Shown in pieces: positions 7,253-43,226 of a stretch of DNA of 64,000 nt. The stretch's first letter is position 1, and every line of letters starts with the position of its first letter. The DNA is taken from contig OY759214.1 in the NCBI GenBank assembly GCA_963662175.1, positions 105,052,115 through 105,116,114 on the forward strand. Direction: 5' to 3'. Below the pieces are notes generated by a model that made no database searches, had not been told where the DNA came from, and was given only the letters and a program-made list of their open reading frames with translations. Made by a program: the position numbers and the translations under genes. The DNA is from Aradus depressus (Eukaryota; Arthropoda; Insecta; Hemiptera; Aradidae).

Positions 7253-7770
7253 ACTATCAAACAAAGGGTTCTACTGGACAATAGACAACTGCAGCGGCAT
7301 TTTGTCAGTCTCGATGTTTGCTGGTACTATCAAAGAAAGGGTTCTACTGGACAATAGACTACTGCAGTGGCATTTTGTCAGTCTCGATGTTTGCTGGTAC
7401 TATCAAAGAAAGGGTTCTACTGGACAATAGACAACTGCAGTGGCATTTTGTCAGTCTCGATGTTTGCTGGTACTATCAAAGAAAGGGTTCTACTGGACAA
7501 TAGACAACTGCAGTGGCATTTTGTCAGTCTCGATGTTTGCTGGTACTATCAAAGAAAGGGTTCTACTGGACAATAGACTACTGCAGTGGCATTTTGTCAG
7601 TCTCGATGTTTGCTGGTACTATCAAAGAAAGGGTTCTACTGGACAATAGACTACTGCAGTGGCATTTTGTCAGTCTCGATGTTTGCTGGTACTATCAAAG
7701 AAAGGGTTCTACAGGACAATAGACTACTGCAGTGGCATTTTGTCAGTCTCGATGTTTGCTGGTACTATCA
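7253..7770 (+). repeat. 73-bp minisatellite, 7 copies, at the intron end of ZNF-A
   Basis: The phrase ACTATCAAA recurs at 7253, 7326, 7399, 7472, 7545, 7618, 7691 and 7764, exactly 73 bp apart. The first unit has c for t within GCAGCGGCATT; the other differences are single bases (agacAActg/agacTActg, actGgac/acAGgac). Each unit includes an acceptor-like CATTTTGTCAG. A single diverged unit lies at about 41925-42005, at the same place before the finger exon of ZNF-B, so the array expanded from an intron-end sequence already present in the ancestor. The frame cycles every three units, which explains the long but meaningless open frames across it. Confidence 0.95.
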
Positions 7771-7803
7771 AATTATTTATATATTTATGTCCTTCTGTTT
7801 TAG

Positions 7804-9341
7804 GTGATACTGATGGCTCCGAATGGATGGTGTGTTTTCACTGTGGTCTTATGACTGTCAGTCTAGGCAGACTTAGGAAACACATTGTTTCGCAGCATAT
7901 AAGAGCCGTCCCTCTTCAGCTGGACGTACAATTGACATCAGAAGACATTAATACCCGGACTTTGATGAAAAATGTGCTAAAGCCGGTCCAATGTACAATC
8001 TGCAGCTATAGTTGTAGAACACCTAGTAAGTTGAAGACGCATATGTTGATACATTCGGAAGATAAACCTTTTCAGTGTAATATGTGCACCCATAGTTGTA
8101 GAGATTCCAGCAATTTGAAGAAACATATGTTAATACATCAGGAAGAGAAACCTTTTCAATGCAGTCTTTGCAGTTATATTTGTAGACAGTCTAGCATTTT
8201 GAAGAGGCATATGTTGATACACACGGGAGAGAAACCATTACAATGTAAGATGTGCAGCTATAGATCTAGAGATTCCAGCAGTTTAAAGACGCATATGTTG
8301 ATACATACAGGAGAGAAACCGTATCAATGTAATATGTGCAGCTACAGTTGTAGGCAATTTATCAGTTTGAAGACGCATATGTTTAAACATACGGGAGAGA
8401 AACCATTCCAATGTAAAATGTGCAGCTTCAGTTCTAGAGGTTCCAGTAGTTTGAAGAGGCATATGTTGGTACATACTGAAGAGAAACCTTTTCAATGTAA
8501 TATGTGCAGCTATATTTGTAAACAGGCTAGCATTCTGAAAAGGCATATCTTGGTACATAAGGGAGAGAAACCTTTCCAATGTAATACGTGCAGCTTCGCT
8601 TTCAGAGACTGCACCAGTTTGAAGAGGCATATGTTGACACATACGGGAGAAAAACCTTTCCAATGTAATATGTGCAGCTATAGTTGTAAACGATCCATCT
8701 ATTTGAAGGCGCATATGCTGATACATAAGGGAGAGAAACCTTTCCAATGTACGGTGTGCAGCTACTCTTGTAGACAATCTAGCTCTTTGAAGAGGCATTT
8801 GTTAATACACAAGGGAGAGAAGCCCTTCCATTGTACGAAGTGCAGCTTCAGTTGTAGAGAATCTAGCATATTGAAGAGCCACATGTTGATACATACAGGA
8901 GAGAAACCTTTCCAATGTAAGATGTGCAACTATAGTGGTAGACAATATAGCTGTTTGAAGAGCCATATGTTGATACATACAGGAGAGAAACCCTTCCAAT
9001 GTAAGCTGTGCAGCTTCAGTTGTAGAGAATCTGGCATATTGAAGAGCCATATGTATCAACATACGGGAGAGAAACCTTTTCAATGCAAGATGTGCAGCTA
9101 CACTTGTAGGCATTCCAGCAGTTTGAAGTCACATATCATGAAACATAAAGGAGAGAAACCTTTTCAATGTAAGTTCTGCAGTTACGGTTGTAGAGAATCG
9201 AATAGATTGAAAAGGCATATGTTAATACATACAGGAGAGAAGCCTTTCCAATGTAAGCTGTGCAGCTACAGTTGTAGACATTCCAGCGGTTTGAAGTCGC
9301 ATGTCTTGAAACATATTGGAGAGAAACCTTTCCAAAGTTAG
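7804..9341 (+). CDS. ZNF-A terminal exon: 16 canonical C2H2 fingers plus one divergent finger
   Basis: The exon follows the acceptor CCTTCTGTTTTAG and begins with GT, which completes the Gly codon from a cassette exon. First comes a divergent finger, WMVCFHCG then RLRKHIVSQH (C-x2-C-x12-H-x4-H), ending in HIRAVP; it is conserved in ZNF-B. A linker of about 45 residues leads to 16 tandem fingers of the form FQCxMCSYSCRxSSxLKxHM with xHTGEKP linkers. Most fingers carry an extra Cys three residues after the second zinc ligand. The exon stops just after the last linker (EKPFQS, stop). Such proteins are expected to be nuclear and to bind DNA; the target cannot be read from this sequence. The likely reading begins at the splice site, not at upstream ATGs inside the minisatellite. 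Confidence 0.93.
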
Positions 9342-10951: not shown

Positions 10952-12284
10952 ATTATAACCATTTCCCTCCCTGTGTGAGTGCAAATCACGTAATTAATAA
11001 AATAAATAAAATTGAGATCGAAAAATTATTAAAATTGAAAATTATTTAAATCGCGACTTTAATTAAACAATGCCTGAATAGCTGAAAGCACTCCCACGGG
11101 AAGAACGGTTACAAGATCCTAACGGTTAGTTGACATCAGTAATTAACAATAATTAATTACTGTTGTCAACCAGAAGAAGCATGAGTGGGGGGGGAATGAA
11201 ATGAATCAAACCTATAACTTTAACATATTTATTTTATGAGAACATATTTACAAAACAACAATTGAATATATATATAATTTGGCCGTGTGTCTGAAGGACT
11301 GAATTATAACTTAATTACGAGGTACCTCGATACGATATCCATGGCGAATGACGGCGTGATCACCCTTTCTGGACTTCCCGTAGAAATCGTCTATTCACAT
11401 AGTCCCTGAAGATCTGCGTAGTTTCGAGGGCACACCAGAAGTTACACCCCCACTGACTTTGCACCATCCAAAATCAAAGTGTGTCTCTACGACTAATTCA
11501 CATATTCAAACTAAACTTTACAAAAGAAAGTAACGTGGTGATCACCCAAGACATGAACGAAGAAAGTTAATTTCACATATTCTAACTGATATTACTTATA
11601 GAAAAGATACGTGGTGATCACCCAAGACATGAACGAAGAAAACTCAATTGACATATTTAAACTCAACTGTACAATATAAAAAGAACGTGGTGACCAGCCA
11701 AGACATGAACGAAGAAAGTTAATTTCACATATTCAAACTCAACTGTACAATATAAAAAGAACGTGGTGACCAGCCAAGACATGAACAAAGAAAGTACTTT
11801 CACATACTGAAACTAGGCTTTACAAAGAGAGGAACGTGGTGATCCACCAAGATATGAACGAAGAATGAGTAAAACGGGGAGTGGCTTCCGATATCCGACC
11901 GTGGTAGGGGACAGTTCTCGAGACTTGATTCGTCGTCGGACTCCGCCCATTTTATTTCCAGCCAATCGCATATTACCAATTAACATCTGCCTCTAGTTGT
12001 GTGAAAACCTGGAGTAAGAAAAAAAACCTTTACTGCTTATTCCTTATACACCGGATGTAGACAATTATCTTGGCTTCCTTTCCATTGTGTCTCTATTATT
12101 CTTTATTTTCCGCTCCCAGCGATCGCGATTCTCTCGCAGGCATCATTGGTTCCGAGCATTCTCTTCCAAATGCAATTCTCGTTTATTCAACACCACACAA
12201 CCCATACTTTGCTCCTAGCGATCGCGATCCTCTCGTAGACATCGCCAGTTCTGAGCATTATCTATAGGGTAGACATGCTACAAT
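10952..12284 (-). repeat. LTR (3' LTR in element orientation), 1333 bp
   Basis: Matches 17044-18453 over its full length. It lacks one of the 76-bp units and one base near its start (ATTATAACC versus ATTAATAACC). It contains five tandem units (CGTGG at 11534, 11610, 11686, 11762, 11835), each with GGTGATCACC or a variant. A minus-strand TATA-like run lies near 11270. Short open frames such as the one at 12070 occur in both LTRs and are not coding. Confidence 0.94.
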
Positions 12285-12300
12285 ATCCCCCGTTCCCGTT
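12285..12300 (-). promoter_or_regulatory. Polypurine tract of the LTR element
   Basis: On the minus strand it reads AACGGGAACGGGGGAT directly before the LTR start ATTGTAGC. This is the expected position and composition of the plus-strand primer. From 12301 to 14060 the element is non-coding as far as I can see. Confidence 0.8.
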
Positions 12301-14060
12301 AAAATAAAATATGTCGGCTAAATGACCATTGGAAGTCACATATTTTATTAGTTTCACTTAACACTTGCTCGTTCACTGAGCATATACACTTAACCAAATA
12401 CTCAGGTATCGACCTCATTATCATGCGTGACCAAAACATGATTTTAAATTTCCTTTCGAATCGGCATGGCTTGCCTATGCATGCGTGACCAAAGCATGAT
12501 TTTACTTTACGCTGTACTTCTTGGAGTTAACCCTCTCCATTGGCAAATAACGATGATTCTATTTCTAGCATACATTCACTGACTAGTTAAAACATCCAAA
12601 AAGGCCCCACGCCTCGACAATGTTTCAACTGAATTCCCATATACCTAATCCGCTTCAACAAAAATTTGGGTTGACGAAACCCTAACCATATGCCTCCTTA
12701 GGCCTTCGACAGGTATTTACCTTCTGCCGGAACGACGACGAAATATAATAGAAAAAAATAAGCCCACTCAAATCCCATCTCAGTTTCATAAACATATGTA
12801 AATTCCGGCATCCACATTAATCCAGTAGCGAAACCCCTTCTTCAGTTCAAACAGTCAGTTCATGGCATAAAAAATAATTAAACAACTCCCGCCCCTTTAA
12901 ATGGATTCTACAAGCATCAATGGAGTGGCCCCTTCTCCGTGTGTACGATAATTAAATATTCAATTCTGGGTATCCCCTCCAGTTTATAATATATCTCCCC
13001 CTTTAGTCATGTATGCTTCGGCACCTTGCCCTAGGATTTCTTAAATAAAATAACAAAATTGACATTTGACCTACCGTGGTCGACACTGCATCATAATAAG
13101 TAAGGTCCATACCTGAATATATGTTACAAATATATTTACAAGGCTCTCATTGGGTTAACATAGCCCATCATGGTCACTAGATAAAATATGGGTCAATGTG
13201 ACATTTTCAATAGATACACACGGTCGGATACTAATACAAATATTATTTAAAAATACAAAACAAAACAGACAAATACAATTGGAAGTACATTTACCATACC
13301 TGACTACCTACAAATGTGTGTGCCATCGCCTCGCTGTCATCCTACTCAGATCCGCGTCTCCTAATCAAATTTAAATACGTAGGTATATTCCCATGGATGG
13401 CCAGTCCATATGCCGTCTGCCCCGTCCTACAATTACGTTAAATTAAAAATGACACCATTACCTAAATTAAATTATCCCATCTATCAATATAAAAAGAAAA
13501 AGACTTACTAATACTATTTAAAAAAATATCCTATTACTAAATATAAACAAAAAATTATTCTAACTTAATATCTAGAATTTAAAAAAAAACTAACCCTAAC
13601 TTATTATCTAAAATTACTATTTACAACCTGGCGATTCACTTCGGAATCTTTGAGCTCGACTAAGGGGGGTATGCTCGATGTTAAGCCCCAGGGGAGTGCC
13701 AGAATGTCCCCGTCTGCCTTATCCTATTTACAAAAAAAATAACTAAATAATAAATCCCGTGTCCCCAATAAATGTGTATGTGTGATTCTTTGTGTGTTGT
13801 TGTATAATGAGGTGTTGGCCGTTAGTGTAAAATAATAAATAATTCCCAAATAATAAAGAATAATGTCTGTTTTATGTGTGTGTGACTTTGTCTAACTGTT
13901 CCTGGGATAGCTGGGGATGGACACCCATAGAGACGTCACAAATCTCTTCCCTGACTCTAGGGCCGCGATCTCGTCTGCAATAATCGCCCCCCTAACTCGG
14001 CTGAAGTAAGATCGTTAATCTCAAAGAGAGCCCTAGCGCTTCTCTAGCCTGCTTGTAAAT

Positions 14061-15038
14061 TTATCCGCTAATACACGGCTTCTGTGAGGTCATATAAAAG
14101 ATTCCTCCTTCCGCTATGTCGCTGCCGAGATGTCCTAAAATAAAAATTTGAGGACTTTCCTTGTCTAAAATCTGATAAGGTCCTTCCCAGAATAGTAATA
14201 GTAATATTTCCCTCTTACCGGTGGATATCCGCAGAGATTGTACTAACACCTGATCGCCAATTTCTAACGTAGTCTGTTGGTGTCGTACCTCAAAGTTTTG
14301 TTTCTGTCTTTCGGCCTGTTTTTCTGTAAATTTGTAAGTCTGTTGTTGTAGTCCCGAAATGTCAGTTATCCTATTGTCTTTGATGAAGTTCACCTGCGGA
14401 TGTTCTTCACAAGTGGGGTTGCCATTAGTCGGGTAGCGGATTATGTGGTCATTGTCTGTCGATATGTCTGTTACTTCGTCCTCGTTTCTAAGTAGGTCAG
14501 AAAACTCCTGCATCAGAGATGATATTCTGACGTCGTCTAGGGAAGTTATGTTTTCGTCATTGCCTGTCGGTTTGTCTGTGATTTCGTCCTCTTTTATACT
14601 TGATGAATTTACGTGATGTGGGGCAGTCATAGTATTGTCGGGGTATGTTTGTTTGTCGATGGGCTCTTCCTGCTTAGCAGTGACTGGTAAGGATGTCTTT
14701 GCTATTGATTCTACGTTAACTGGTGATCTGATATCAAAAAATTTGTACTCGTAACCTAATCCTTGAAGTGGTCTTCTCGTGCTGATAAAAACTGGTTCCA
14801 AACGTCCATTACCGTGTCTTCCTAAACCGCTACCTTCTCGGTACCCTTGAAGCTTCAACAATGTCAGTCCGTTGTTACTGTCTGTCTTTACCTTTACAGG
14901 AGTGGGACATCTATTGTCAACGTTAGTATGTAGGTCAATGTCCCCTGTCAATCTCGTCATCATCTCTGTACCAAGCAAACTGCGTATGTCCCCCTTGAAT
15001 TTAAATTTACCTCCCCCCATAGTTTTAAGTTTGTTCAT
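14061..15038 (-). CDS. ORF2 of the LTR element: G-patch plus integrase C-terminal module
   Basis: 325 codons from an ATG at 15038. Residues about 59-97 form a G-patch (LLKLQGYREGSGLGRHGNGR, then GLGYE), a glycine-rich RNA-binding module also known at the C-terminus of some retroviral proteases. The last 100 residues resemble an integrase C-terminal domain (LEIGDQVLVQSLR, then FWEGPYQIL). Everything between protease and integrase C-terminus in a normal pol (catalytic protease, RT, RNase H, integrase core) is absent. The middle is acidic and repetitive (DNDHII, DDVRISSLMQEF). The frame is -1 relative to gag and open upstream to the slippery site, so translation as a Gag fusion is likely. Origin by internal deletion of pol with later maintenance of the frame is an inference. 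Confidence 0.82.
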   Translation of the reverse strand: MNKLKTMGGGKFKFKGDIRSLLGTEMMTRLTGDIDLHTNVDNRCPTPVKVKTDSNNGLTLLKLQGYREGSGLGRHGNGRLEPVFISTRRPLQGLGYEYKFFDIRSPVNVESIAKTSLPVTAKQEEPIDKQTYPDNTMTAPHHVNSSSIKEDEITDKPTGNDENITSLDDVRISSLMQEFSDLLRNEDEVTDISTDNDHIIRYPTNGNPTCEEHPQVNFIKDNRITDISGLQQQTYKFTEKQAERQKQNFEVRHQQTTLEIGDQVLVQSLRISTGKREILLLLFWEGPYQILDKESPQIFILGHLGSDIAEGGIFYMTSQKPCISG

Positions 15039-15062
15039 CCCACTCCTGCTACTTAGTTTTTT
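14897..15062 (-). promoter_or_regulatory. Predicted -1 ribosomal frameshift signal (gag/ORF2)
   Basis: Heptamer A AAA AAC (15056-15062, minus strand) is in the correct phase for gag codons AAA AAC and sits directly before the gag stop UAA. A 7-nt spacer UAAGUAG follows, then CAGGAGUGGGA (15038-15048). That segment is perfectly complementary, over 11 bp, to UCCCACUCCUG at 14897-14907, 130 nt further on. After a -1 slip, reading continues CTA AGT AGC AGG AGT GGG ATG into ORF2 without a stop. A AAA AAC is the heptamer used at the gag-pro junction of mouse mammary tumour virus. Confidence 0.8.
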
Positions 15063-16612
15063 ATCAAGTGGTCAACAATTGGTTTCAGGTTGTTAGCCAA
15101 CTCTCCAAGGGATTGCTTTATTTCTTTCATGTCTGTATTGACATTGTTGTCTGTCACTACCTCCATGTTTCTTACATTAGGTTTCGACTGGTTATCCCTA
15201 TAATTAGGTGGTCGATTATAATTCTGATTTGAGTCATAGTAATTACGTGGCCGATCGTAATTTGGATTTGACTCGCGGGAAGGGCCTCGGCTAAATTGAT
15301 TCCCTCTCTCTTGATTGTAGTGAGAGGTTCCCCGTGCATTCCCAGAATTGTAACGAGGTAGGTCTTGTTTGGGAAAGTTATTGTTTTTCGGAAGACTATC
15401 TGGTCGGTACTGTCTTTCCCCGCCTTTCCAAGAACTATCCTTTAATTTACAATCACGTCTAATTATGTTAGTACCTATCCTAATTATTTGCTCATGTAGT
15501 CTCTCAATAGAGATTATTCCCTGGATCCTAACTGAATTTTCGACCGTCTCTCCATAATGTTTGCTTAATAGTTCACATACGTAGCCTTCCGGAATTTTAT
15601 ATGTACTATCCTGGAGTCGTGACACTAATTTTGAAAAATGTTCGCTGGGTGTTTTATCCATATGATCGGCATAGCCTTGGGTATCAAGTTCCCTACGGAC
15701 TATAACGTCATATTTCTCCCCGCAGAACCTATCTTTGAACGCATTGACGAATTCATCAAAAGAGCGGATACTTCCTGACTTTACAAGGAACCAATCCAGA
15801 CCCTCGCCCTTTAAATGTGACTTTATAAATTCGTTCAGATTATAAAATTCTCCAATGTGACTATATGCAATTTCTAAATTTGATATGAAATGGTTGGGTA
15901 AATCCAACACATTGTTACGGAACGTTACCTTGTTACGTTCGTAATTTTTTATATACGTATTTTGGAAAGTGACGTTACTAGGTTGTTCGCGAGCAAAGGT
16001 CTGACCTGTATACCAATCCTTATGTTCTTCAGGGATGGGGAACGTCACTTGGTCATTATGTTTTGGGGTTGAGACCTGATTTTGACCCGAAACAGTATCT
16101 ATTCTCTTCGAGATATTGGCGAATCTCTTCTCACAATCGGTACGAAAAAGATTTTGGTTCGAATTTATTTCCTCGACCTCCTTATCTAAACGTTGTGTTT
16201 CTGACATGATCCTACCTGTCATTTCATGATGACAGACATCTACCATGTCCCTAACTTCAGAAACATGTTTGTCATATTTCCCTTCTAAATTGTCCTGTCT
16301 AGTTCTCAATTCTCCGGACTCAGATCGTAGAGTGCCCATCTCGCGATTAATGGATTCGATATTATTTGCCATTAACGAAATTTCTTGGCGCACACCCCTT
16401 ATCTCGGAAGTCTGTTGTCCTAGGGAATTTCCCAAGTTTCCCATCTGTTCCTGCATGGCCTTTCCCTGCTGTCCTATCTGTTCCTGCATGGCCTTAAACA
16501 TCGCCTCTAGGTCAAATTTAGGATTTTCTACCGGGGACTCCGGGGGCGTACGGATAGTTTTCCTAGACCGTGTCTGTATCGGCTCTAAGTCCGACTTCCC
16601 TTTCCCTTCCAT
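15053..16612 (-). CDS. gag: Gag of the LTR element, 519 aa, intact
   Basis: An uninterrupted frame beginning at an ATG (MEGKGKSDLEPIQTRSRK). Residues about 35-185 are a long coiled coil with a near-duplicated AMQEQxG segment. About 200-395 look like a retrotransposon capsid domain (FNAFKDRFCGEKYD, then YVCELLSKHYGETV). About 400-490 are Arg/Asn/Tyr-rich and low-complexity (NPNYDRPRNYYDSNQNYNRP). There is no CCHC zinc knuckle, so RNA binding is probably by the basic low-complexity tail, as in some Gypsy-group Gags. It ends at UAA next to the frameshift heptamer. No stop or frameshift over 1.56 kb, while pol is gone, suggests recent origin or selection on Gag. Confidence 0.9.
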   Translation of the reverse strand: MEGKGKSDLEPIQTRSRKTIRTPPESPVENPKFDLEAMFKAMQEQIGQQGKAMQEQMGNLGNSLGQQTSEIRGVRQEISLMANNIESINREMGTLRSESGELRTRQDNLEGKYDKHVSEVRDMVDVCHHEMTGRIMSETQRLDKEVEEINSNQNLFRTDCEKRFANISKRIDTVSGQNQVSTPKHNDQVTFPIPEEHKDWYTGQTFAREQPSNVTFQNTYIKNYERNKVTFRNNVLDLPNHFISNLEIAYSHIGEFYNLNEFIKSHLKGEGLDWFLVKSGSIRSFDEFVNAFKDRFCGEKYDVIVRRELDTQGYADHMDKTPSEHFSKLVSRLQDSTYKIPEGYVCELLSKHYGETVENSVRIQGIISIERLHEQIIRIGTNIIRRDCKLKDSSWKGGERQYRPDSLPKNNNFPKQDLPRYNSGNARGTSHYNQERGNQFSRGPSRESNPNYDRPRNYYDSNQNYNRPPNYRDNQSKPNVRNMEVVTDNNVNTDMKEIKQSLGELANNLKPIVDHLIKN

Positions 16613-17025: not shown

Positions 17026-17043
17026 GTCCCTGTTCGGGCGCCA
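17026..17043 (-). promoter_or_regulatory. Primer-binding site, lysine tRNA type
   Basis: On the minus strand it reads TGGCGCCCGAACAGGGAC directly after the LTR end TTAAT. This is an exact 18-nt match to the 3' end complement of tRNA-Lys3, the primer also used by lentiviruses. It fixes the element's orientation and 5' end. Confidence 0.92.
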
Positions 17044-18453
17044 ATTAATAACCATTTCCCTCCCTGTGTGAGTGCAAATCACGTAATTAATAAAATAAAT
17101 AAAATTGAGATCGAAAAATTATTAAAATTGAAAATTATTTAAATCGCGACTTTAATTAAACAATGCCTGAATAGCTGAAAGCACTCCCACGGGAAGAACG
17201 GTTACAAGATCCTAACGGTTAGTTGACATCAGTAATTAACAATAATTAATTACTGTTGTCAACCAGAAGAAGCATGAGTGGGGGGGGAATGAAATGAATC
17301 AAACCTATAACTTTAACATATTTATTTTATGAGAACATATTTACAAAACAACAATTGAATATATATATAATTTGGCCGTGTGTCTGAAGGACTGAATTAT
17401 AACTTAATTACGAGGTACCTCGATACGATATCCATGGCGAATGACGGCGTGATCACCCTTTCTGGACTTCCCGTAGAAATCGTCTATTCACATAGTCCCT
17501 GAAGATCTGCGTAGTTTCGAGGGCACACCAGAAGTTACACCCCCACTGACTTTGCACCATCCAAAATCAAAGTGTGTCTCTACGACTAATTCACATATTC
17601 AAACTAAACTTTACAAAAGAAAGTAACGTGGTGATCACCCAAGACATGAACGAAGAAAGTTAATTTCACATATTCTAACTGATATTACTTATAGAAAAGA
17701 TACGTGGTGATCACCCAAGACATGAACGAAGAATGTTAATTTCACATATTCTAACTGATATTACTTATAGAAAAGACACGTGGTGATCACCCAAGACATG
17801 AACGAAGAAAACTCAATTGACATATTTAAACTCAACTGTACAATATAAAAAGAACGTGGTGACCAGCCAAGACATGAACGAAGAAAGTTAATTTCACATA
17901 TTCAAACTCAACTGTACAATATAAAAAGAACGTGGTGACCAGCCAAGACATGAACAAAGAAAGTACTTTCACATACTGAAACTAGGCTTTACAAAGAGAG
18001 GAACGTGGTGATCCACCAAGATATGAACGAAGAATGAGTAAAACGGGGAGTGGCTTCCGATATCCGACCGTGGTAGGGGACAGTTCTCGAGACTTGATTC
18101 GTCGTCGGACTCCGCCCATTTTATTTCCAGCCAATCGCATATTACCAATTAACATCTGCCTCTAGTTGTGTGAAAACCTGGAGTAAGAAAAAAAACCTTT
18201 ACTGCTTATTCCTTATACACCGGATGTAGACAATTATCTTGGCTTCCTTTCCATTGTGTCTCTATTATTCTTTATTTTCCGCTCCCAGCGATCGCGATTC
18301 TCTCGCAGGCATCATTGGTTCCGAGCATTCTCTTCCAAATGCAATTCTCGTTTATTCAACACCACACAACCCATACTTTGCTCCTAGCGATCGCGATCCT
18401 CTCGTAGACATCGCCAGTTCTGAGCATTATCTATAGGGTAGACATGCTACAAT
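17044..18453 (-). repeat. LTR (5' LTR in element orientation), 1410 bp
   Basis: It has six tandem 76-bp units (CGTGG near 17627, 17703, 17779, 17855, 17931, 18004), one more than the other LTR, accounting for nearly all of the 77-bp length difference. Each unit contains the palindrome GGTGATCACC or a variant, followed by CAAGACATGAACGAAG. Their place between the U3 start and a TATA-like run (minus strand, about 17360) fits an enhancer repeat. Function is inferred. Confidence 0.93.
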
Positions 18454-18956: not shown

Positions 18957-19029
18957 ATAAAACATACAAAAATAATAATGCGAATAATCTATATTAATAA
19001 AGCTGAAACGGGGTTTGTTTGTATGTATG

Positions 19030-20095
19030 TATGTATGTTTGTTCCAGCATCACGCCCAAACTGCTGGACGGATTTTTACGAAACTTCCCATGTAGCATTC
19101 TTTTGAGCCCGATTGAATAATAGGCTATGTGGCGTCCCAAAATTTTGATCGGGAGGGGGGGTTGTAAGGGGGGCCTAAGTATATAAATAGTGCTAACTCA
19201 TTAACTAATGGTCGAAGTGTCATGAAATTTCACATGTAGTATTTTTAAAAGCCAAGTAGGAAAAAAAGGTGTGTGGCGTCCCAAAGTTTTGAACGGAAGG
19301 GGGGGTTGTGGGGGGGCCTAAGTATAAATATAGTGCTAACTCTTTAACGGTTGGTCGGATTGTCACGAAGTTTCACATGTAGTATTCCTGAAGACCAAAT
19401 AAAAAAATAGGCGGTGTGACGGCTCAAAATTTTGTACGGGAGGGGGGGTAGTGGGGGGCCTAAGTATAAATATAGAGCTAACTCATTAACTAATGGGCGA
19501 ATCGTCATGAAATTTCACATGTAGTATTTTTAAAAGCCAAGTAGGAAAAAAAGGTGTGTGGCGTCCCAAAGTTTTGAACGGGAGGGGGGGTTGTGGGGGG
19601 GGCCTAAGTATAAATATAGAGCTAACTCTTTAACGGTTGGTCGGATTGTCACGAAATTTCACATGGAGTATTCCTGAAGGCCAAATAGAAACATAAGGTG
19701 TGTGGCGTTCCAAAGTTTTGATCGGGAGGGGGGGGGTAGTGGCGGGGGGGCCTAAGTATAAATATGGTGCTAGCTCAATAACGGTTGGTCGTATTATCAT
19801 GGAATTTCACATGTAGTATTCTTAAAAGCCAAATAGAAATATATAGTGTATATGTCACAAAATTTTGAACGGGAGGGTGGGTTGATGAGGGCCTAAGTAT
19901 AAGTATAGTGATAAGTTATTAACGGATGATCGGATTGTCACGAAATTTCACATGAAGTATTCATAAAGGCCAAATAGAAAAATAGGGTGTGTGACGTCAA
20001 AAAATTGTGAACGGGAGGGGGCTTATGGGGGTAGGCCTAAATTTGAAGATAGTGATAGGTCATTAACGGATGATCGGATTGTCATGGAATTTCAC
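19030..20095 (+). repeat. Tandem repeat of about 143 bp inside the Helitron
   Basis: CCTAAGTATA recurs at about 19174, 19317, 19459, 19603, 19751, 19892 and 20037. Units share 'attaacggttggtcggattgtcacgaaatttcacatgtag' in sections and a G-rich run (gggagggggggttgtgggggg). The units differ by point changes and G-run length. Confidence 0.88.
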
Positions 20096-20099
20096 ATGT

Positions 20100-21120
20100 A
20101 GTAGTAGTAACTATGTATTCGCTGTGGGGTTCACTGTTGCAAGACATTTACTAGCTGTGATGTCCAGCGTTCCTAATATCGTACTAGCTGTGGGGTCCGC
20201 TGTTGCAAGGCACTTACTAGCTGTAGTGCTCAGCCCCAGCGTTCCTAAAAACGTACTAGCTGTGGGGTCCGTCGCTGCAAAAGCATACTAGCTGTGATGC
20301 CCAGCGTTTCTAACTAGGTACTAGATGTGGGGTCCGCCGTTGCAGAACACATACTAGCTGTGATGCTCAGCGTTTCTAACTACGTACTAGCTGTGGGGTC
20401 CGCTGTTGCAAGGCACTTACTAGCTGTGATGCCCAGCGTTCCTAACTTCGTACTAGCTGTGGGGTCCGCTCTTGCGAGGCACATACTAGCTGCGGTGACC
20501 AGCGTTCTAACTACGTACTAGCTGTGGGGTCCGCCGTTGCAAGGCATATACTACCTCTGGTGCCCAGCGTTCCTAACTACGTACTAGCTGTGGTGCCCAG
20601 CGTTGCAAGGCATATATTAGCTGTGGTCACAAACGTTCTTAAGTTCGCACTAGCTAGGACGTCCAGCGAAGCTAAGTATTCACTAGCTGTGGTTTCCGCC
20701 GTTGAAAGGCGCATACTAGCTGTGGTGCCCAGGGGTCCTAAAAACTTACTAGCGTTACTATAGTTGAAGGACTATAAGCCTTATTCCGTATGAATAATTG
20801 AAAATTATAACATCATGAATGTACTGTTAAAGGGTAAGCGGATTGGCATGAATTTCACATGTAGTAGTAGTAACTATGTATTCGCTGTGGGGTCCGCTGT
20901 TGCAAGGCATTTACTAGGTGTGATGCCCAACGTTCCTAATATCGTACTAGCAGTGGGGTCCGCTGTTGCAAGGCACTTACTAGCTGCGGTCAATAGCGTT
21001 CCTAAGTACGCACTGGCTAGGATGTCCAGCGATGCTAAGTATTCACTATCTGTGGTTTCCGCCGTTGAAAGACTCATACTAGGTCCTAAAAACTTACTAG
21101 CTGGGGTGTTTGACGTTGAA
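20100..21120 (+). repeat. ACTAGCTGTGG minisatellite, two blocks, inside the Helitron
   Basis: Units of about 60-66 bp alternate phrases such as TACTAGCTGTGGGGTCCGC and GTTGCAAGGCACTTACTAGC. The first block is 20100-20760, the second 20870-21115. The second block repeats both the sequence before the first (ttcacatgtagtagtagtaac) and that after it (gaaggactataagccttatt), so a whole segment of about 0.8 kb was duplicated and then shortened. Open frames through it are repeat artefacts. Confidence 0.88.
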
Positions 21121-21384
21121 GGACTATAAGCCTTATTCCGTATGAATAATTGAAAATTATAACATCATGAATGTACTGTCGAGGAACTGAATAGCCTTAT
21201 AGGAGATATTGGGAGAAAAGTCAAAGTTCCCCGGGCAACGCCGGGTATTACTGCTAGTGAGAGAATAAAATAAAGACAAGAAACCAAATAAAATTAACTA
21301 AACAACATGGCGGGTAAATGGTAATAATCATAAATTACATGAAGGAAGGAGGGTCCTAGAAATTAAATTCCCGAATTAACATAT

Positions 21385-40500: not shown

Positions 40501-43226
40501 TGCTTAATTTCATTTCTCTGAATTAACCCACAAATTTTCCCTTATAAAGTCTCCAATCCTCTTTCTCAACAGGAATCTGGTTTTGTTCAAATTGATAATG
40601 ATATTATGTTTTTGCTGGCGATAGGTAAAACTTTTAACTGAATTCACAATGTTAATTATTAGAGTAGTGATAAAAGAGCAAAAATTGTGTATAAACCCAA
40701 TTTTGAATTTTTTTGACTTACACCACTTTCATCCTCACCGGCTCATATAAATGTAAGTATCTTATATTGAATATAAATTTAATTTCTTTATATTTCCAGG
40801 TATGGAAGAATGCTCTGTCCATGTCAAAGAAGAACGGAAGGTCCATTTCAAAGAAGAACCGGCACTGCTGATCGAGGATGACTTCGGTAAGTCTGTTCTA
40901 CTCTAAGCTACACAATATGACTTTCTTCATATGACTTTCTTATTCTCTGTATTCTCGTGTTACTATTTTGTACGTGTTAATATTTTGACGCCATACAAAC
41001 GCCACAGAAACATTCTCTTCTCGAGTTAATCAGCTGATTATCTGAAACAAGTTACGACTGAAGTTACTGTTTGAAACCCTAATTACATTTTTACTATCCC
41101 AGGTGTGCTTAGTATAAGGGATAGTAAGATGTGGGACGAGATATTTCATTGAAATAAAAGACGTTGTCTTCCCACTGTTTATACCAGAACCGGTTTTCAA
41201 GGCAACAGCGTCATCATCCGTGGTACATCCCACCCAGTTGTCCTTTAACCGCTGTTCTGTATGGGTGGGATGTACCACAGATGATGACGCTGTTGCGTTG
41301 AAAACTGGTTCTGGTCTAAAATAAAACAGTGGGAAGACAACGTCTTTTATTTCTATAGTACAAGGGAAGTCATTTCGGTCAAAATTCAGTATCGAATGTT
41401 CACCGGAATTTCACGTTTTCTGTCCCTAAATCCAAAAATGAAGATAAAACATCATGTGTTTCTCTGCGTGCGTGTGTCTGTGAACTCGATAACTCCTGAC
41501 AGTATTAATATGCCGGTAATTTTTCTGATTCTGTTGAAGTTCAGGGTCCTTAAGGACTATTTACATTTAACGGTTCGTTCACCGCGGGTTCGGTCTGGAA
41601 GCGATCCAGACCGTGGCGCTCCGGGCGTGACCGCCTCATGTGAATAACCCAACAGTCAGCTAACGGTTAAAGATGGACGAGTGTGTCCAACAACATGAGA
41701 AACTACCTAATTTTTTTATGGAAATACATTGATTCCTCCCATAAAATAGATTTATGAAAATTACTGCAACAAAGTATTGAATTTTTTTTTTTCGAAAAAA
41801 TAACATCCTATTTTAGAATAAGTTACGTGCTGACCTTTTGTCTTGAGTCTGATATCAGGACATTTCTTTTTATTCAATTTTATATGAAGTAATTGGTATT
41901 ATTATTGTCGATCTGGCACAGATGGTGTGTTTTCAGTGCACTCTACTGGCCAATAGATAACTGGAGTGGCATTTTACCAATCTCTGTTTTCTGAGACTAT
42001 TAAATCGTTGAAGATATTTATTTCTTTGTTTTTTAGGTGATACTGTTGGCTTCAAGTGGATGGTGTGTTTTCACTGCGGTCATATGTCTGCAAGCCTCGA
42101 CAGACTTAGGAAACACATTGTTTGGCGGCATATAAGAGCCGTCCCTCCACAGCAGTACTTACGTTCTATTTCAAAAAATAATAGCTTTTTGATAACAAAT
42201 GTGGTAAAATCGTTCCAATGTTCATTCTGTACTTACAGTTGTAGAGTATCTTGCAATTTGAAGAGGCATATGTTGATACATACTGGAGAGAAACCTTTCC
42301 AATGTGAGATGTGCAGCTACTGTTGTAGACAAGCTATCTCTTTGAAGAGGCATATGTTGATACACACTGGAGAAAAACCGTTTCAATGTCAGTTGTGCAG
42401 CTACTGTTGTAGAGAATCTAACTCTTTGAAGAAGCATATGTTGATACATAATAGTGAGACACCATTCCAATGTAATGTGTGCAGCTACTGTTGTACACAA
42501 TCTTGCTCTTTGAAGAAGCATATGTTGATACACACTGGAGAGAAACCATTCCAATGTGAGTTGTGCAGCCACACTTGTAGAGCATCTAGCAATTTAAAGC
42601 AGCATATGTTGATACATACTGGAGAGAAACCTTTCCAATGTAAGATGTGCAGCTACTGTTGTACCCAGTCTATCTCTTTGAAGAAGCATATGTTGATACA
42701 CACTGGAGAGAAACCATTCGAATGTCAGTTGTGCAGCTACACCTTTAGAGCATCTAGTCATTTGAAGAGGCATTTGTTGATACATACGGGAGAGAAACCT
42801 TTCCAATGTAAGATGTGCAGCTACTGTTGTACACAATCTAGCTCTTTGAAGAAGCATATGTTGATACACACTGGAGAGAAACCATTCCAATGTGAGTTGT
42901 GCAACTACACTTGTAGAGCACCTAGCAATTTAAAGAAGCATTTGTTGATACATACGGGAGAGAAACCTTTCCAATGTAAGATGTGCAGCTACTGTTGTAC
43001 ACAATCTAGCTCTTTGAAGAAGCATATGTTGATACACACTGGAGAGAAACCATTCCAATGTGAGTTGTGCAACTACACTTGTAGAGCATCTAGCAATTTA
43101 AAGCAGCATATGTTGATACATACTGGAGAGAAACCATTCCAATGTGAGTTGTGCAACTACACTTGTAGAGCATCTAGCCATTTGAAGAGGCATTTGTTGA
43201 TACATACGGAAGAGAAACCCTTCTAA
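28451..43226 (+). CDS. ZNF-B: complete C2H2 zinc-finger gene (4 coding exons, 472 aa)
   Basis: Coding segments 28451-28505, 35373-35459, 40800-40886 and 42037-43226 add to 1419 nt, exactly 473 codons with the stop, and all junctions agree in phase 1. The protein has an acidic N-terminus of about 77 residues made of a leader plus two 29-residue cassettes, then the conserved divergent finger, a linker and 12 canonical fingers. A nuclear DNA-binding regulator is the expected role. The gene is paralogous to ZNF-A and lies in the same orientation. Its introns carry a CR1/L2-like LINE, a Merlin relic, and a TIR element with a nested Jockey-like LINE. The 3' end was shortened by a nonsense change at 43224. 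Confidence 0.83.
29196..30132 (+). pseudogene. LINE ORF1: PHD-like finger plus coiled coil, one frameshift
   Basis: The start MGKCSKCHTTVPRDGSG is followed by IECNWCSHIFHGQCSGL, and the last Cys pair (WSCPQC) comes after a run of A at 29328-29337, in another frame. The C4HC3 ligand set of a PHD-type finger is therefore complete but split by a one-base slip in the A run. From 29455 to 30132 the frame is open: a coiled coil (about 29455-29680) and a conserved C-terminal domain with RRNILEIRGIPV and LKREGKVKFVWGNGGKVLVR, as in LINE/FP25K-like ORF1 proteins. A sequencing error in the homopolymer is possible. Confidence 0.75.
30521..33328 (+). CDS. LINE ORF2: endonuclease and reverse transcriptase, intact
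   Basis: I take MTYNTLQ at 30521 as start; an in-frame ATG lies 90 nt upstream in a T-rich leader with no domain. An APE-type endonuclease comes first (CHVNAQSL, GISESWLKP, GGGVAIFV, SGDFNSDL, then SAHDLIQI). The RT has PKDFRPISLL, FDFSVAFDSVDH, GVPQGSSLSPLLF and the YADD box at about 32474-32485, followed by a thumb and a C-terminal RxP.SDLF...SLWNSLPP segment typical of CR1/L2-type elements. About 935 codons without a stop, so this copy could encode an active enzyme; expression is unknown. Confidence 0.92.
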   Translation: MTYNTLQCCHVNAQSLPAHHDEFSDFLHSNSFHIIGISESWLKPWIPSSSVSLPDHHLFRNDRLDRPGGGVAIFVHHSLKCRRLDSSSSPPSSSQVEFLFLEIRIDSTKLFYGVVYRPPKVPFDPTFESALLRLIPLYSCILISGDFNSDLMSPAAPNSKYLLDLCYSLNLFIVPYAPTHHTSTSHSWLDLHLADSQQKISSSAQQPVPFLSAHDLIQISYDIPSPHLTPRSLLLRNLKSLTFETLQEDLDAADWQAIFDLASIDEKMNTFNQILLKLLDKHAPLKMRQLRRPPAPWITPEIREIMKERDSVRRRFYRSKLDVDYSSFKVLRNRAQSLIRAAKFLLNLIAKAPNAMSRWAALRKLSLGSPKNPPSPSIFSPDTLNSFFVSRPILPLASPAEITSPQPFDSNNFFFSYIYPDTLLKIILNSSSNALGPDDIPLLFLKTSLPVILPVLLHIYNFSLQNSVFRSAWKEAFVLPLNKVPNPEAPKDFRPISLLYSTSKPLERIVHSQISDFLLTNKLLDPFQSGFRPGYGTQSALLKLTEDFRQAIDARQLTLLVLFDFSVAFDSVDHSILLSKLSSLPLSNNVLLWLQSYLADRSQSVKFPNSPASSSLPLHSGVPQGSSLSPLLFSLFLLDLPPHIQFCKYHLYADDPQIYLFFHPSSFPTAYSQISDDINSISSWAKQNKLLLNPHKTQAIILGNKKLLNNLTDPPLLTLDNTNINYSSRVKNLGIILDQSLSWKEHVSYISRKSFQSLAQFKRSRHSLSQNSRKLLVSSFVFPHFDYGCLVYNDLSKGLDIKLQRILSAHVRFVFDVPRDAHISPWYSELKWLKPSYRRNYLLGSFLFLMLKSKEPYYLYQMFQFQSSVHQRHTRSPPSDLFIPSHRSSAFHNSFLVQASSLWNSLPPPIRHSPSVASFKSSLFQFLFTKQSTPL
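33329..34008 (+). other. 3' UTR of the CR1/L2-like LINE
   Basis: T-rich, ending AATAATAAAATTTATTTTCATTTTCATTTC. Its last 250 bp match the reverse complement of 63748-64000 with many substitutions, showing at least two copies of different age. Confidence 0.75.
34190..35158 (+). pseudogene. Merlin (IS1016-like) transposase relic, interrupted
   Basis: Recognisable pieces in different frames: WEEAITFLQMKELLP (about 34215) and KQCVKGHEMNLY, an insertion at 34308-34549, then SPFWKCTTRPCLKKIGLRVG (34575-34640). Further on come TLIEQIENHVETGSVIMSDC (34785) with the catalytic Asp, WKAYKTEDLQAAGF, and ERMWGSAKWRNKRHRGT (34960) with the last catalytic region. This is the DDE domain of the IS1016/ISXO2 type used by eukaryotic Merlin elements. 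Several stops and frameshifts make it dead. Confidence 0.78.
34308..34549. mobile_element. 242-bp insertion containing a perfect 93-bp palindrome
   Basis: The insertion splits the Merlin relic and is flanked by an exact 12-bp duplication CTTGTACTCATT (34296-34307, 34550-34561). After 43 bp of single-copy sequence, arms 34351-34443 and 34457-34549 are perfect inverted repeats around a 13-nt loop TTTGTAAGTGACT. The arm contains GATAATGCC-ttaacac-GGC-GAAAC, similar to the hammerhead-like core in the other hairpins of this window. The variable-length TSD suggests target-primed insertion. Confidence 0.88.
35373..35459 (+). CDS. ZNF-B cassette exon 1, 87 bp, phase 1-1
   Basis: Acceptor TGTTAATTTCAG, donor GTAAGT. 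It reads (Y)SDERNILVKEERMVNIKKDP then ELLIEDDF. One clean psi-K-x-E (VKEE) is present; the second is NIKKD, degenerate. Same length, phase and layout as the ZNF-A cassettes; the upstream sequence (gaagccaggccatgatt near 35887 compared with gaagccagggcataatt near 1497) is also shared between the loci. Confidence 0.83.
36620..37545 (+). pseudogene. Jockey-type Gag (ORF1) with zinc knuckles, frameshifted
   Basis: The start MDAATVSEPNMPSTSEMEWH leads to a domain with VVIRHLHPSASLIEIKEGL and LPLFFVDLEP, typical of Jockey Gag, then the first knuckles CKRCMVYGHSRTYC and CVRCGE. The last knuckle (CALCQGQHPANYKGC, about 37397-37441) lies in the next frame, so a slip occurred near 37340-37360. The rest to about 37850 is Pro-rich in overlapping frames. 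Confidence 0.83.
37855..39715 (+). pseudogene. Jockey-type ORF2 with deleted endonuclease and RT segments
   Basis: The endonuclease start LLWNANGL (37862) has a stop at 37929. MAGGDYNAKHLEWGC (38239) carries the GDxN box, but the endonuclease breaks off at about 38345. From there to 39240 the RT N-terminal part is open (ILQLPNKKSPGYD, SSYRPISLL, HQFGFRQKHST). It then joins directly to the thumb (about 39270: LGVYKTVIRPIWKYGVQLWG); the palm with YADD is missing. A C-terminal piece (39420-39715) follows in another frame. Not functional. Confidence 0.85.
39990..40479 (-). pseudogene. Gene remnant inside the TIR element, family unknown
   Basis: A minus-strand frame with YLSELLNIRKMYIMYTEKC and HFHVPKKDTCEKYDAYKKK, preceded in another frame by ECKMFFLNTLCFRW. 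The pattern FHxPKKDxCxKY recalls proteins of unknown function that recur in arthropod genomes and are probably transposon-borne. No DDE motif is left, and a frameshift near 40300-40380 separates the parts. Confidence 0.5.
40800..40886 (+). CDS. ZNF-B cassette exon 2, 87 bp, phase 1-1
   Basis: Acceptor TTTATATTTCCAG, donor GTAAGT. It reads MEECSVHVKEERKVHFKEEP then ALLIEDDF and joins to GDTVGFKW in the finger exon. Both psi-K-x-E motifs are good (VKEE, FKEE). It lies 55 bp beyond the TIR element, which therefore inserted without harming the splice site. Confidence 0.84.
41151..41353. repeat. Palindromic hairpin repeat with hammerhead-like core, copy 2
   Basis: Arms 41151-41236 and 41262-41353 are imperfect inverted repeats around about 25 bp. 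The right arm reads CAGATGATGACGC-TGTT-GCGTTGAAAACTGG. It is the two-armed form of the single arm at 9945-10060. It lies in the last ZNF-B intron. Confidence 0.8.
41355..41560 (+). repeat. Repeat family R, partial copy
   Basis: Shares 'ccggaatttcacgttttctg' and 'gtgtctgtgaactcgataactcc' with the copies at 2371, 46076 and 63600. Non-coding. Confidence 0.65.
41925..42005 (+). repeat. Single diverged copy of the ZNF-A 73-bp unit
   Basis: CTCTACTGGCCAATAGATAACTGGAG, written here in parts as CTCTACTGGCC and AATAGATAACTGGAG, then GGCATTTTACC, corresponds to TTCTACTGGACAATAGACAACTGCAG and GGCATTTTGTC of the array at 7253. Same position, immediately before the finger exon. Confidence 0.85.
42037..43226 (+). 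CDS. ZNF-B terminal exon: 12 canonical C2H2 fingers plus one divergent finger
   Basis: Acceptor TTTGTTTTTTAG, then GT completing Gly and DTVGFKWMVCFHCG. The divergent first finger (CFHCG, RLRKHIVWRH, HIRAVP) is conserved with ZNF-A. Twelve fingers follow. From finger 5 on, types alternate: CKMCSYCCTQSSSLKKH and CELCNYTCRASSNLKQH form a two-finger unit repeated at near nucleotide identity (42805-42955 compared with 42955-43105). Finger 7 has Phe in place of the extra Cys. The frame ends at TAA 43224-43226 within EKPF, where the repeat pattern predicts CAA (Gln). Confidence 0.92.

What the first reader, a model, noticed from the sequence alone, without database searches (positions are those of the whole stretch)
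14897..15062. A -1 frameshift module with an 11-bp long-range stem in an LTR element that has no pol enzymes
A AAA AAC sits in gag phase right before the gag stop. Seven nucleotides later CAGGAGUGGGA begins and pairs perfectly with UCCCACUCCUG 130 nt downstream (G-U pairs could extend it). The -1 frame runs straight into ORF2. Programmed frameshifting normally sets the Gag:Gag-Pol ratio; here the product would be Gag fused to a G-patch and an integrase tail. Retention of a complete signal in a pol-less element suggests the fusion is useful for parasitising another element's particles.
Basis: partly seen in the sequence, partly recalled or inferred. Interest (0 to 1): 0.82.

Follow-up and report, generated by a model that had tools for sequence, protein, structure and literature searches.

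The report
Frameshift signal in parasitic retrotransposon
A jumping gene that has lost its enzyme genes still carries a complete ribosome-frameshifting signal, which it shares with, and appears to keep swapping with, a full-length partner element in the same genome.

Summary
A AAA AAC (15062-15056) is in gag phase before the gag stop. Seven nt later CAGGAGUGGGA pairs with UCCCACUCCUG across a 130-nt loop; the -1 frame enters ORF2 (G-patch, integrase tail, no enzymes). Of 20,000 synonymous recodings, 7 gave an equal helix. Three related copies (RT 74-82% identical) keep heptamer, spacing and stem, with one compensated A-U to C-G pair.

The host genome has about 25 close RT copies of an autonomous Ty3/Gypsy partner; 13 junctions seen carry the same module, and one copy was checked to have protease, RT, RNase H and integrase. 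The pol-less junction has 217 matches. Left of the deletion the two classes share polymorphisms and hardly differ; right of it synonymous divergence is 0.31. Exchange of the 5' half, module included, would itself keep the signal, so usefulness of the fusion for parasitism is not shown. Hints: 97 of 101 pol-less copies keep ORF2 open, and shared indels in its tail are multiples of three. Against: substitutions show no significant selection (P = 0.10), the linker looks neutral, and in folds of 400 nt or more the stem no longer dominates.

The parts
17044..18453 (-). 5' LTR (borders within about 5 nt), with one 76-nt repeat unit more than the 3' LTR
   Evidence: direct repeat; LTR alignment; border letters
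17026..17043 (-). primer binding site TGGCGCCCGAACAGGGAC; the label tRNA-Lys is recalled
   Evidence: sequence directly after the 5' LTR
15053..16612 (-). gag, 519 codons plus TAA; weak capsid similarity to Ty3 capsid and Arc
   Evidence: Ty3_capsid E 0.0012, below cutoff; Arc E 0.0044
15056..15062 (-). slippery heptamer A AAA AAC in gag phase
   Evidence: exact in 116 of 118 held copies
15049..15055 (-). 7-nt spacer, starting with the gag stop codon
15038..15048 (-). 5' arm CAGGAGTGGGA of the long-range stem
14897..14907 (-). 3' arm TCCCACTCCTG of the long-range stem
14061..15071 (-). ORF2, -1 frame, 336 aa stop to stop (325 aa from its first ATG at 15038)
14748..14879 (-). G-patch domain (residues 65-108 of ORF2)
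   Evidence: Pfam PF01585 E 3.3e-9
14468..14490 (-). left deletion junction: the autonomous copies part from the pol-less copies here
14064..14400 (-). integrase C-terminal tail, by homology to the tail of the autonomous partner
   Evidence: SH3-like hits in the partner's tail, below cutoff; no Pfam hit in the window's own tail
12285..14060 (-). 3' region without a reading frame over 75 codons; its first part is also in the autonomous copy
10952..12284 (-). 3' LTR (borders within about 5 nt)

Best explanation
This is the gag-pol -1 frameshift signal of a Ty3/Gypsy retrotransposon family, carried by a young, high-copy, pol-less derivative. Ribosomes reaching A AAA AAC are stalled by a long-range stem that starts about 7 nt downstream; most end at the gag stop, a minority slip back one base. 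In the autonomous partner this makes Gag-G-patch-PR-RT-RH-IN; in the pol-less element it would make Gag-G-patch-integrase tail. The pol-less element probably supplies its own Gag and takes enzymes from the partner, and the two exchange their 5' halves, probably by template switching in shared particles. Shown by sequence: the signal, the partner, the deletion, the stem's recurrence in related copies, the lack of differentiation left of the deletion. Inferred: frameshifting activity, co-packaging, mobilisation in trans, any role of the fusion.
For: Heptamer, spacing and stem. In L120, L122 and L126 the heptamer, a 7-8 nt spacing and the stem recur; over five sequences 58 of 60 cells pair versus 36-48% when slid, and one pair changes A-U to C-G. 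ORF2's first ATG is not conserved in those three, which speaks against reinitiation. Autonomous copies have the same module and G-patch (13 of 13 autonomous-like junctions held; G-patch start), and the one examined, L012/L079, continues with PR, RT, RNase H and IN. 217 matches to the pol-less junction against about 25 close RT copies. Net divergence between classes is 0.0021 or less in 9 of 9 windows from 15738 to 14614, then 0.057 with 5 fixed differences in the window at the junction; 27 shared polymorphic sites; 2,447 of 6,670 site pairs in pol-less copies show four gametes. Synonymous divergence 0.025 in the gag end versus 0.31 in the tail. No clear substitution between the two LTRs.
Against: No frameshifting was measured. 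In folds of 400-900 nt from the heptamer the stem has probability 0.16 or less, and with upstream sequence 0.0 in L122, 0.04 in the autonomous L012 and 0.19 in L126. Only one pair changes on both sides, in few and related sequences; 48 of 500 shuffles match the covariation score. A relative at 62% RT identity has a local hairpin instead. Gene conversion between genomic copies could mimic template switching.
Confidence: 0.82

Rival explanations
1. The fusion is useful to the pol-less element: Gag-G-patch-integrase tail, made at a few percent by frameshifting, enters the partner's particles and favours packaging or integration of the pol-less RNA, as reported for the mouse IAP 1-delta-1 fusion.
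For: 97 of 101 pol-less copies keep ORF2 open to its natural end (the first 103 codons were selected for by the search). In the linker and tail the 7 indels shared by two or more copies are all multiples of 3, while 0 of 3 shared in the noncoding 3' region are (Fisher 0.008). A 108-nt in-frame deletion ends at the junction. Pairwise dN/dS in the tail is 0.44-0.50. IAP 1-delta-1: the fusion acts in cis (PMC6466679, passages).
Against: After correction for the mutation spectrum, shared tail variants show no significant lack of amino-acid changes (41 of 63, expected 45.9, P = 0.10). The linker has dN/dS 0.88 within pol-less copies. The shared indels may not be independent: a 12-nt and a 54-nt deletion sit side by side in 6 copies each, and three insertions lie within 8 nt. 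Copies are young, so open frames may be leftovers. Exchange with the partner keeps the 5' part anyway.
Confidence: 0.3
2. The signal is a passive relic: the pol-less copies are recent and the module has simply not had time to decay.
For: The window copy's LTRs show no clear substitution; the first search found 40 of 40 scored copies (of 257 candidates) identical over 191 nt.
Against: The tail is diverse (72 distinct tails in 101 copies) and far from the partner's (dS 0.31), so the lineage is not brand new; shared polymorphism with the partner in the 5' half points to exchange rather than youth alone.
Confidence: 0.3
3. ORF2 is not reached by frameshifting but by reinitiation at its first ATG, 14 nt after the gag stop, or from a spliced RNA.
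For: An ATG lies at 15038-15036, overlapping the end of the 5' arm.
Against: That ATG is absent in L120, L122 and L126, while heptamer, spacing and stem are kept.
Confidence: 0.08

Closest known systems
-1 programmed frameshifting between gag and pol of animal LTR retrotransposons
   Same: Heptamer in gag phase before the gag stop, pol in the -1 frame; 28 of 51 surveyed animal retroelements had pol in -1 (PMC5009743, passages).
   Different: The stimulator is an 11-14 bp stem closing a 126-152 nt loop; that compact hairpins or pseudoknots are usual is recalled. In the window's element no enzyme lies downstream.
Mouse IAP 1-delta-1 elements
   Same: Pol-deleted, responsible for most new insertions, dependent on proteins in trans, with a gag-pol remnant fusion (PMC6466679, passages).
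   Different: There the deletion removes part of gag and pol and makes one fused frame; here gag is whole and the fusion needs frameshifting.
Wheat semi-autonomous RLG_Sabrina_SA and RLG_WHAM
   Same: High-copy Gypsy elements encoding Gag but no RT or integrase, living beside an autonomous family (PMC9744471, passages).
   Different: They keep a protease, and the word frameshift does not occur in that main text; here protease is lost and the frameshift signal kept.
Non-autonomous endogenous pararetroviruses of grasses
   Same: Region-specific recombination homogenises partners (PMC5491270, abstract).
   Different: There noncoding regulatory regions; here the gag end, frameshift module and G-patch coding region.
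HeT-A of Drosophila telomeres
   Same: A mobile element with only a Gag-like protein, whose expression needs frameshifting (PMC5009743, passage).
   Different: A non-LTR element, with frameshifting needed for gag itself, not for a pol remnant.
PEG10 and PNMA (Ma3, Ma5) genes
   Same: Ty3/Gypsy-derived genes that keep frameshifting; Ma3 and Ma5 encode no Pol domain (PMC5009743, passages).
   Different: Immobile host genes, not a mobile high-copy family.
G-patch of type D retroviruses and of plant Gypsy elements
   Same: G-patch in a retroelement polyprotein; found in plant Gypsy consensuses of seven species (PMC9289625, passages).
   Different: Here it lies at the start of Pol, about 120 residues before the protease motif; that retroviral G-patches follow the protease is recalled.

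Membership tests
-1 programmed frameshift signal | X XXY YYZ heptamer in the zero frame with an open -1 frame | tested here: met
-1 programmed frameshift signal | Stimulatory structure about 5-9 nt downstream | tested here: met
   spacing 6-8 nt in 5 of 5 sequences aligned; stem conserved with one compensated pair
-1 programmed frameshift signal | Stem stable in its natural RNA context | tested here: inconclusive
   0.99 up to 300 nt, 0.08-0.16 at 400-900 nt
-1 programmed frameshift signal | Measured frameshifting | not testable with these tools
   needs a reporter or peptide data
Ty3/Gypsy LTR retrotransposons | LTRs, primer binding site, gag | tested here: met
   gag similarity weak
Ty3/Gypsy LTR retrotransposons | PR-RT-RH-IN order with a Ty3-like RT | tested here: met
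   in one autonomous copy, L012/L079: Pfam order (RVP 20.2 bits, cutoff 20.7); best solved RT matches 4ol8 (E 1.7e-21) and 7q5b, named Ty3 Gag-Pol
Ty3/Gypsy LTR retrotransposons | The window element's own enzymes | tested here: not met
   no PR, RT, RH or IN core found; hence a non-autonomous derivative
Betaretrovirus-like Pro with G-patch | G-patch after the protease (recalled) | tested here: not met
   G-patch at residues 54-97, DSG motif at residue 216 of the partner's ORF2
Semi-autonomous partner system like IAP 1-delta-1 | Pol-deleted class outnumbering a full-length partner in one genome | tested here: met
   217 junction matches versus about 25 close RT copies
Semi-autonomous partner system like IAP 1-delta-1 | Single fused gag-pol frame | tested here: not met
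   116 of 118 held copies have the exact heptamer before TAA; L010 and L049 are fused by one extra A
Semi-autonomous partner system like IAP 1-delta-1 | Mobilised in trans | not testable with these tools
   inferred from exchange of the 5' half

The most novel reading that the evidence does not exclude
A mobile parasite selected to keep ribosomal frameshifting although it has no enzymes left: it makes its own Gag plus a few percent of a Gag-G-patch-integrase-tail adaptor that enters the partner's particles or integration complex, while its 5' half, with a long-range frameshift stem, is kept compatible by steady recombination with the partner.
Probability: 0.27. Interest if true: 0.72.

Novelty: new variant of a known kind. 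Interest (0 to 1): 0.52.

Why it matters
It is a natural case in which one frameshift signal serves an autonomous element and its more numerous pol-less derivative in the same genome. Because the two classes seem to share alleles freely up to the deletion point, the genome itself records exchange between host element and parasite, and the deletion point separates inheritance from selection: right of it the pol-less tail evolves apart from the partner's, so its frame-keeping can be tested with more copies. The long-range stem, recurring in related families, would also be an unusual stimulator for an LTR retrotransposon (as far as I recall).

Tried and rejected
Protein searches with gag (2,924 candidates) and ORF2 (1,008 candidates) found nothing at E 0.001, and two scans of viral contigs found no relative. 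Rfam has no match in 14000-15200. Within-family conservation as proof of the stem was dropped: about 20% of 11-nt windows nearby are equally invariant. Fold energy of the segment was dropped as evidence (z -0.37). dN/dS as proof of selection on the tail was dropped after spectrum correction. L123, L127 and L128 did not reach or contain the gag-pol junction and were left out of the stem alignment; L121 (62% RT) has a local hairpin and L124 (51%) no A6C heptamer, so neither was in it. A window-wide count of 11-nt inverted repeats (bases 1-48000) is swamped by simple repeats (2,080, of which 138 have three or more kinds of base).

Papers. Seen as passages: PMC9289625, PMC9744471, PMC5009743, PMC6466679. 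Abstract and section list: PMC5491270. Listings only: 4 of 4; 20 of 729; 15 of 22; 12 of 38; 12 of 28; 8 of 13; 2 of 2; 1 of 1. Among the titles listed none describes a G-patch at the start of Pol of an animal Gypsy element or a frameshift signal kept in a pol-less mobile LTR element; apart from the passages named I did not read those papers, so absence from print is not shown.

Full report
What is there. On the minus strand of the window lies an LTR element with LTRs of about 1.33 and 1.41 kb that differ by one 76-nt repeat unit and no clear substitution, a primer binding site directly after the 5' LTR, an intact gag (16612-15053) and ORF2 in the -1 frame (15071-14061). Pfam finds a G-patch in ORF2 (E 3.3e-9) and no enzyme. 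The gag heptamer A AAA AAC is followed after 7 nt by CAGGAGTGGGA, whose exact complement lies 130 nt further.

Is it more than chance? Of 5,000 dinucleotide shuffles 1 reached 11 Watson-Crick pairs at a fitting distance. Of 20,000 recodings that keep the protein, 7 had a helix as long for the window, 4 for L125, 3 for L120 and 6 for L122; L126 has stops and was left out of this null. The fold energy of the 191-nt stretch is ordinary (z -0.37); that of L120 is z -1.21 (25 of 200 shuffles as low), that of L122 z -2.94 (0 of 200). The stem dominates in stretches up to 300 nt from the heptamer (0.99) but not with 400-900 nt (0.08-0.16 in the window, 0.08 to 0.0 in the autonomous L012). With upstream sequence it has 0.58 in the window, 0.04 in L012, 0.89 in L120, 0.0 in L122 and 0.19 in L126. 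A ribosome at the heptamer would have cleared upstream sequence (inference), but downstream competition stays an open point.

Copies in the genome. The window belongs to a 698-Mb assembly, G000. A protein search with the ORF2 start scored 150 of 281 candidates, all 150 without stops in the matched part; about two thirds have an open frame of 336 aa, 9 of 150 one of 1,264 aa, and two more 1,259 and 1,184 aa. The long one examined, L012 with L079, continues after the G-patch with protease (RVP E 7.7e-4, just under its cutoff, DSG motif at residue 216), RT, RNase H and integrase. That is the autonomous partner. Its RT is nearest to Ty3 among solved structures. A pattern over the pol-less junction has 217 matches with up to 3 mismatches and 0 for the reversed control; the RT search (150 of 1,693 candidates scored) shows 23 copies at 95% identity or more and two partial ones at 97%. 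Of 118 held copies (of 150 listed, the window's own included) 98 are of the main pol-less type, 13 autonomous-like and 7 have other deletions; three of these 7 share a further 108-nt deletion and were added to the 98, giving the 101 used below, and four were left out. Each of the 13 lies beside an RT match.

Conservation inside the family. Heptamer exact in 116 of 118; L010 and L049 carry one extra A that puts gag and ORF2 in one frame (867 and 852 aa open). Arm 5' unchanged in 118, arm 3' in 117, L061 having a C-to-T that keeps a G-U pair. This has little power, as a fifth of nearby 11-nt windows are as invariant.

Related families. L120 (RT 82%), L122 (78%) and L126 (74%, partial RT) have the heptamer, 7-8 nt spacing and an 11-12 bp stem at the matching place. 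A fifth sequence, L125, has arms like the window's although the RT near it is 78% identical and broken by stops, so it is a mosaic or a nested copy. On the alignment of the five 58 of 60 cells pair, against 36-48% when slid; one pair is A-U in two and C-G in three; 48 of 500 shuffles reach the covariation score. In window against L122 both changes are synonymous in ORF2 (Arg AGG/CGG, Pro CCT/CCG; read). ORF2's first ATG is not kept in L120, L122 and L126. L121 (62%) has the heptamer and a local hairpin; L124 (51%) lacks the heptamer. So the long-range stem belongs to a group of related families and is not universal.

Exchange between classes. In nine windows from 15738 to 14614 the net divergence between pol-less (101) and autonomous-like (13) copies is 0.0021 or less; in the last window, at the junction, it is 0.057 with 5 fixed differences. 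Twenty-seven sites are polymorphic in both classes (two or more copies of each allele). Within the pol-less copies 2,447 of 6,670 site pairs show all four combinations. Synonymous divergence between classes is 0.025 in the gag end, 0.045 in the ORF2 start and 0.31 in the tail (tail: 101 against 9 autonomous copies). Most held pol-less copies share one junction, and their tails differ from the nine autonomous tails, so repeated independent loss does not easily explain the shared polymorphism; exchange does, most simply by template switching in shared particles (inferred; gene conversion is not excluded). The signal is then kept in the pol-less class without any need for its own use there.

Is the fusion used? 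For: 97 of 101 pol-less copies keep ORF2 open to the natural end, the start having been selected for by the search; 5 of 101 have a stop in the last 224 gag codons, L010 and L049 aside. Of 13 indels in linker and tail 9 are multiples of three and the 4 others are in single copies; all 7 shared ones are multiples of three, against 0 of 6 (0 of 3 shared) in the noncoding 3' region (Fisher 0.011 for all, 0.008 for shared). Some of the 7 may be one event split by the alignment. dN/dS among pol-less tails is 0.44-0.50, in the gag end 0.18. Against: the linker has dN/dS 0.88; with the mutation spectrum considered, shared tail variants are not significantly short of amino-acid changes (41 of 63, expected 45.9, P = 0.10); singletons against shared variants gives Fisher 0.10; and the window copy is young. 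In mouse IAP 1-delta-1 a gag-pol remnant fusion helps in cis (PMC6466679, passages), so the idea is sound but unproven here.

Verdict. A -1 frameshift module, complete in sequence, with a long-range stem conserved in related families, in a pol-less derivative of a Ty3/Gypsy element whose partner sits in the same genome. The kinds are known; the combination (whole gag, kept frameshift signal, G-patch at the start of Pol, exchange up to the deletion point) is a new variant as far as the searches named here go.

Noticed in passing
window 48720-52973, both strands: A minisatellite of short units is open on both strands (1,417 and 1,381 codons), with repeats such as NIALGGLMSRRCPVPTTA.
   Followed up: no
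window 18996-21165: Two further tandem arrays, spacings of about 143 nt and 66 nt, beside the 5' LTR.
   Followed up: no
L010 and L049: One extra A in the heptamer fuses gag and ORF2 into one frame; 2 of the 118 held copies.
   Followed up: partly
window 14400-14064 and the same stretch in 101 copies: The pol-less integrase tail is a diversity hot spot (72 distinct tails, dS 0.07) between regions of low diversity: gag end and 3' noncoding p-distance about 0.007.
   Followed up: partly
G000 contig C14: 40 of 150 RT matches (my count from the listing) lie on C14, many in short frames, while the 150 rows show none there; it may be a degenerate or heterochromatic chromosome (guess).
   Followed up: no
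L121 525-651: A family at 62% RT identity has the same heptamer before its gag stop but a compact local hairpin, so the stimulator type seems to have changed between families.
   Followed up: partly
L125 (G000 C2:49350340-49350790): A junction like the window's family lies near an RT stretch only 78% identical and broken by stops, perhaps a mosaic or nested copy.
   Followed up: no
window 7650-9341 and 42012-43226, + strand: Two long zinc-finger reading frames of similar style.
   Followed up: no
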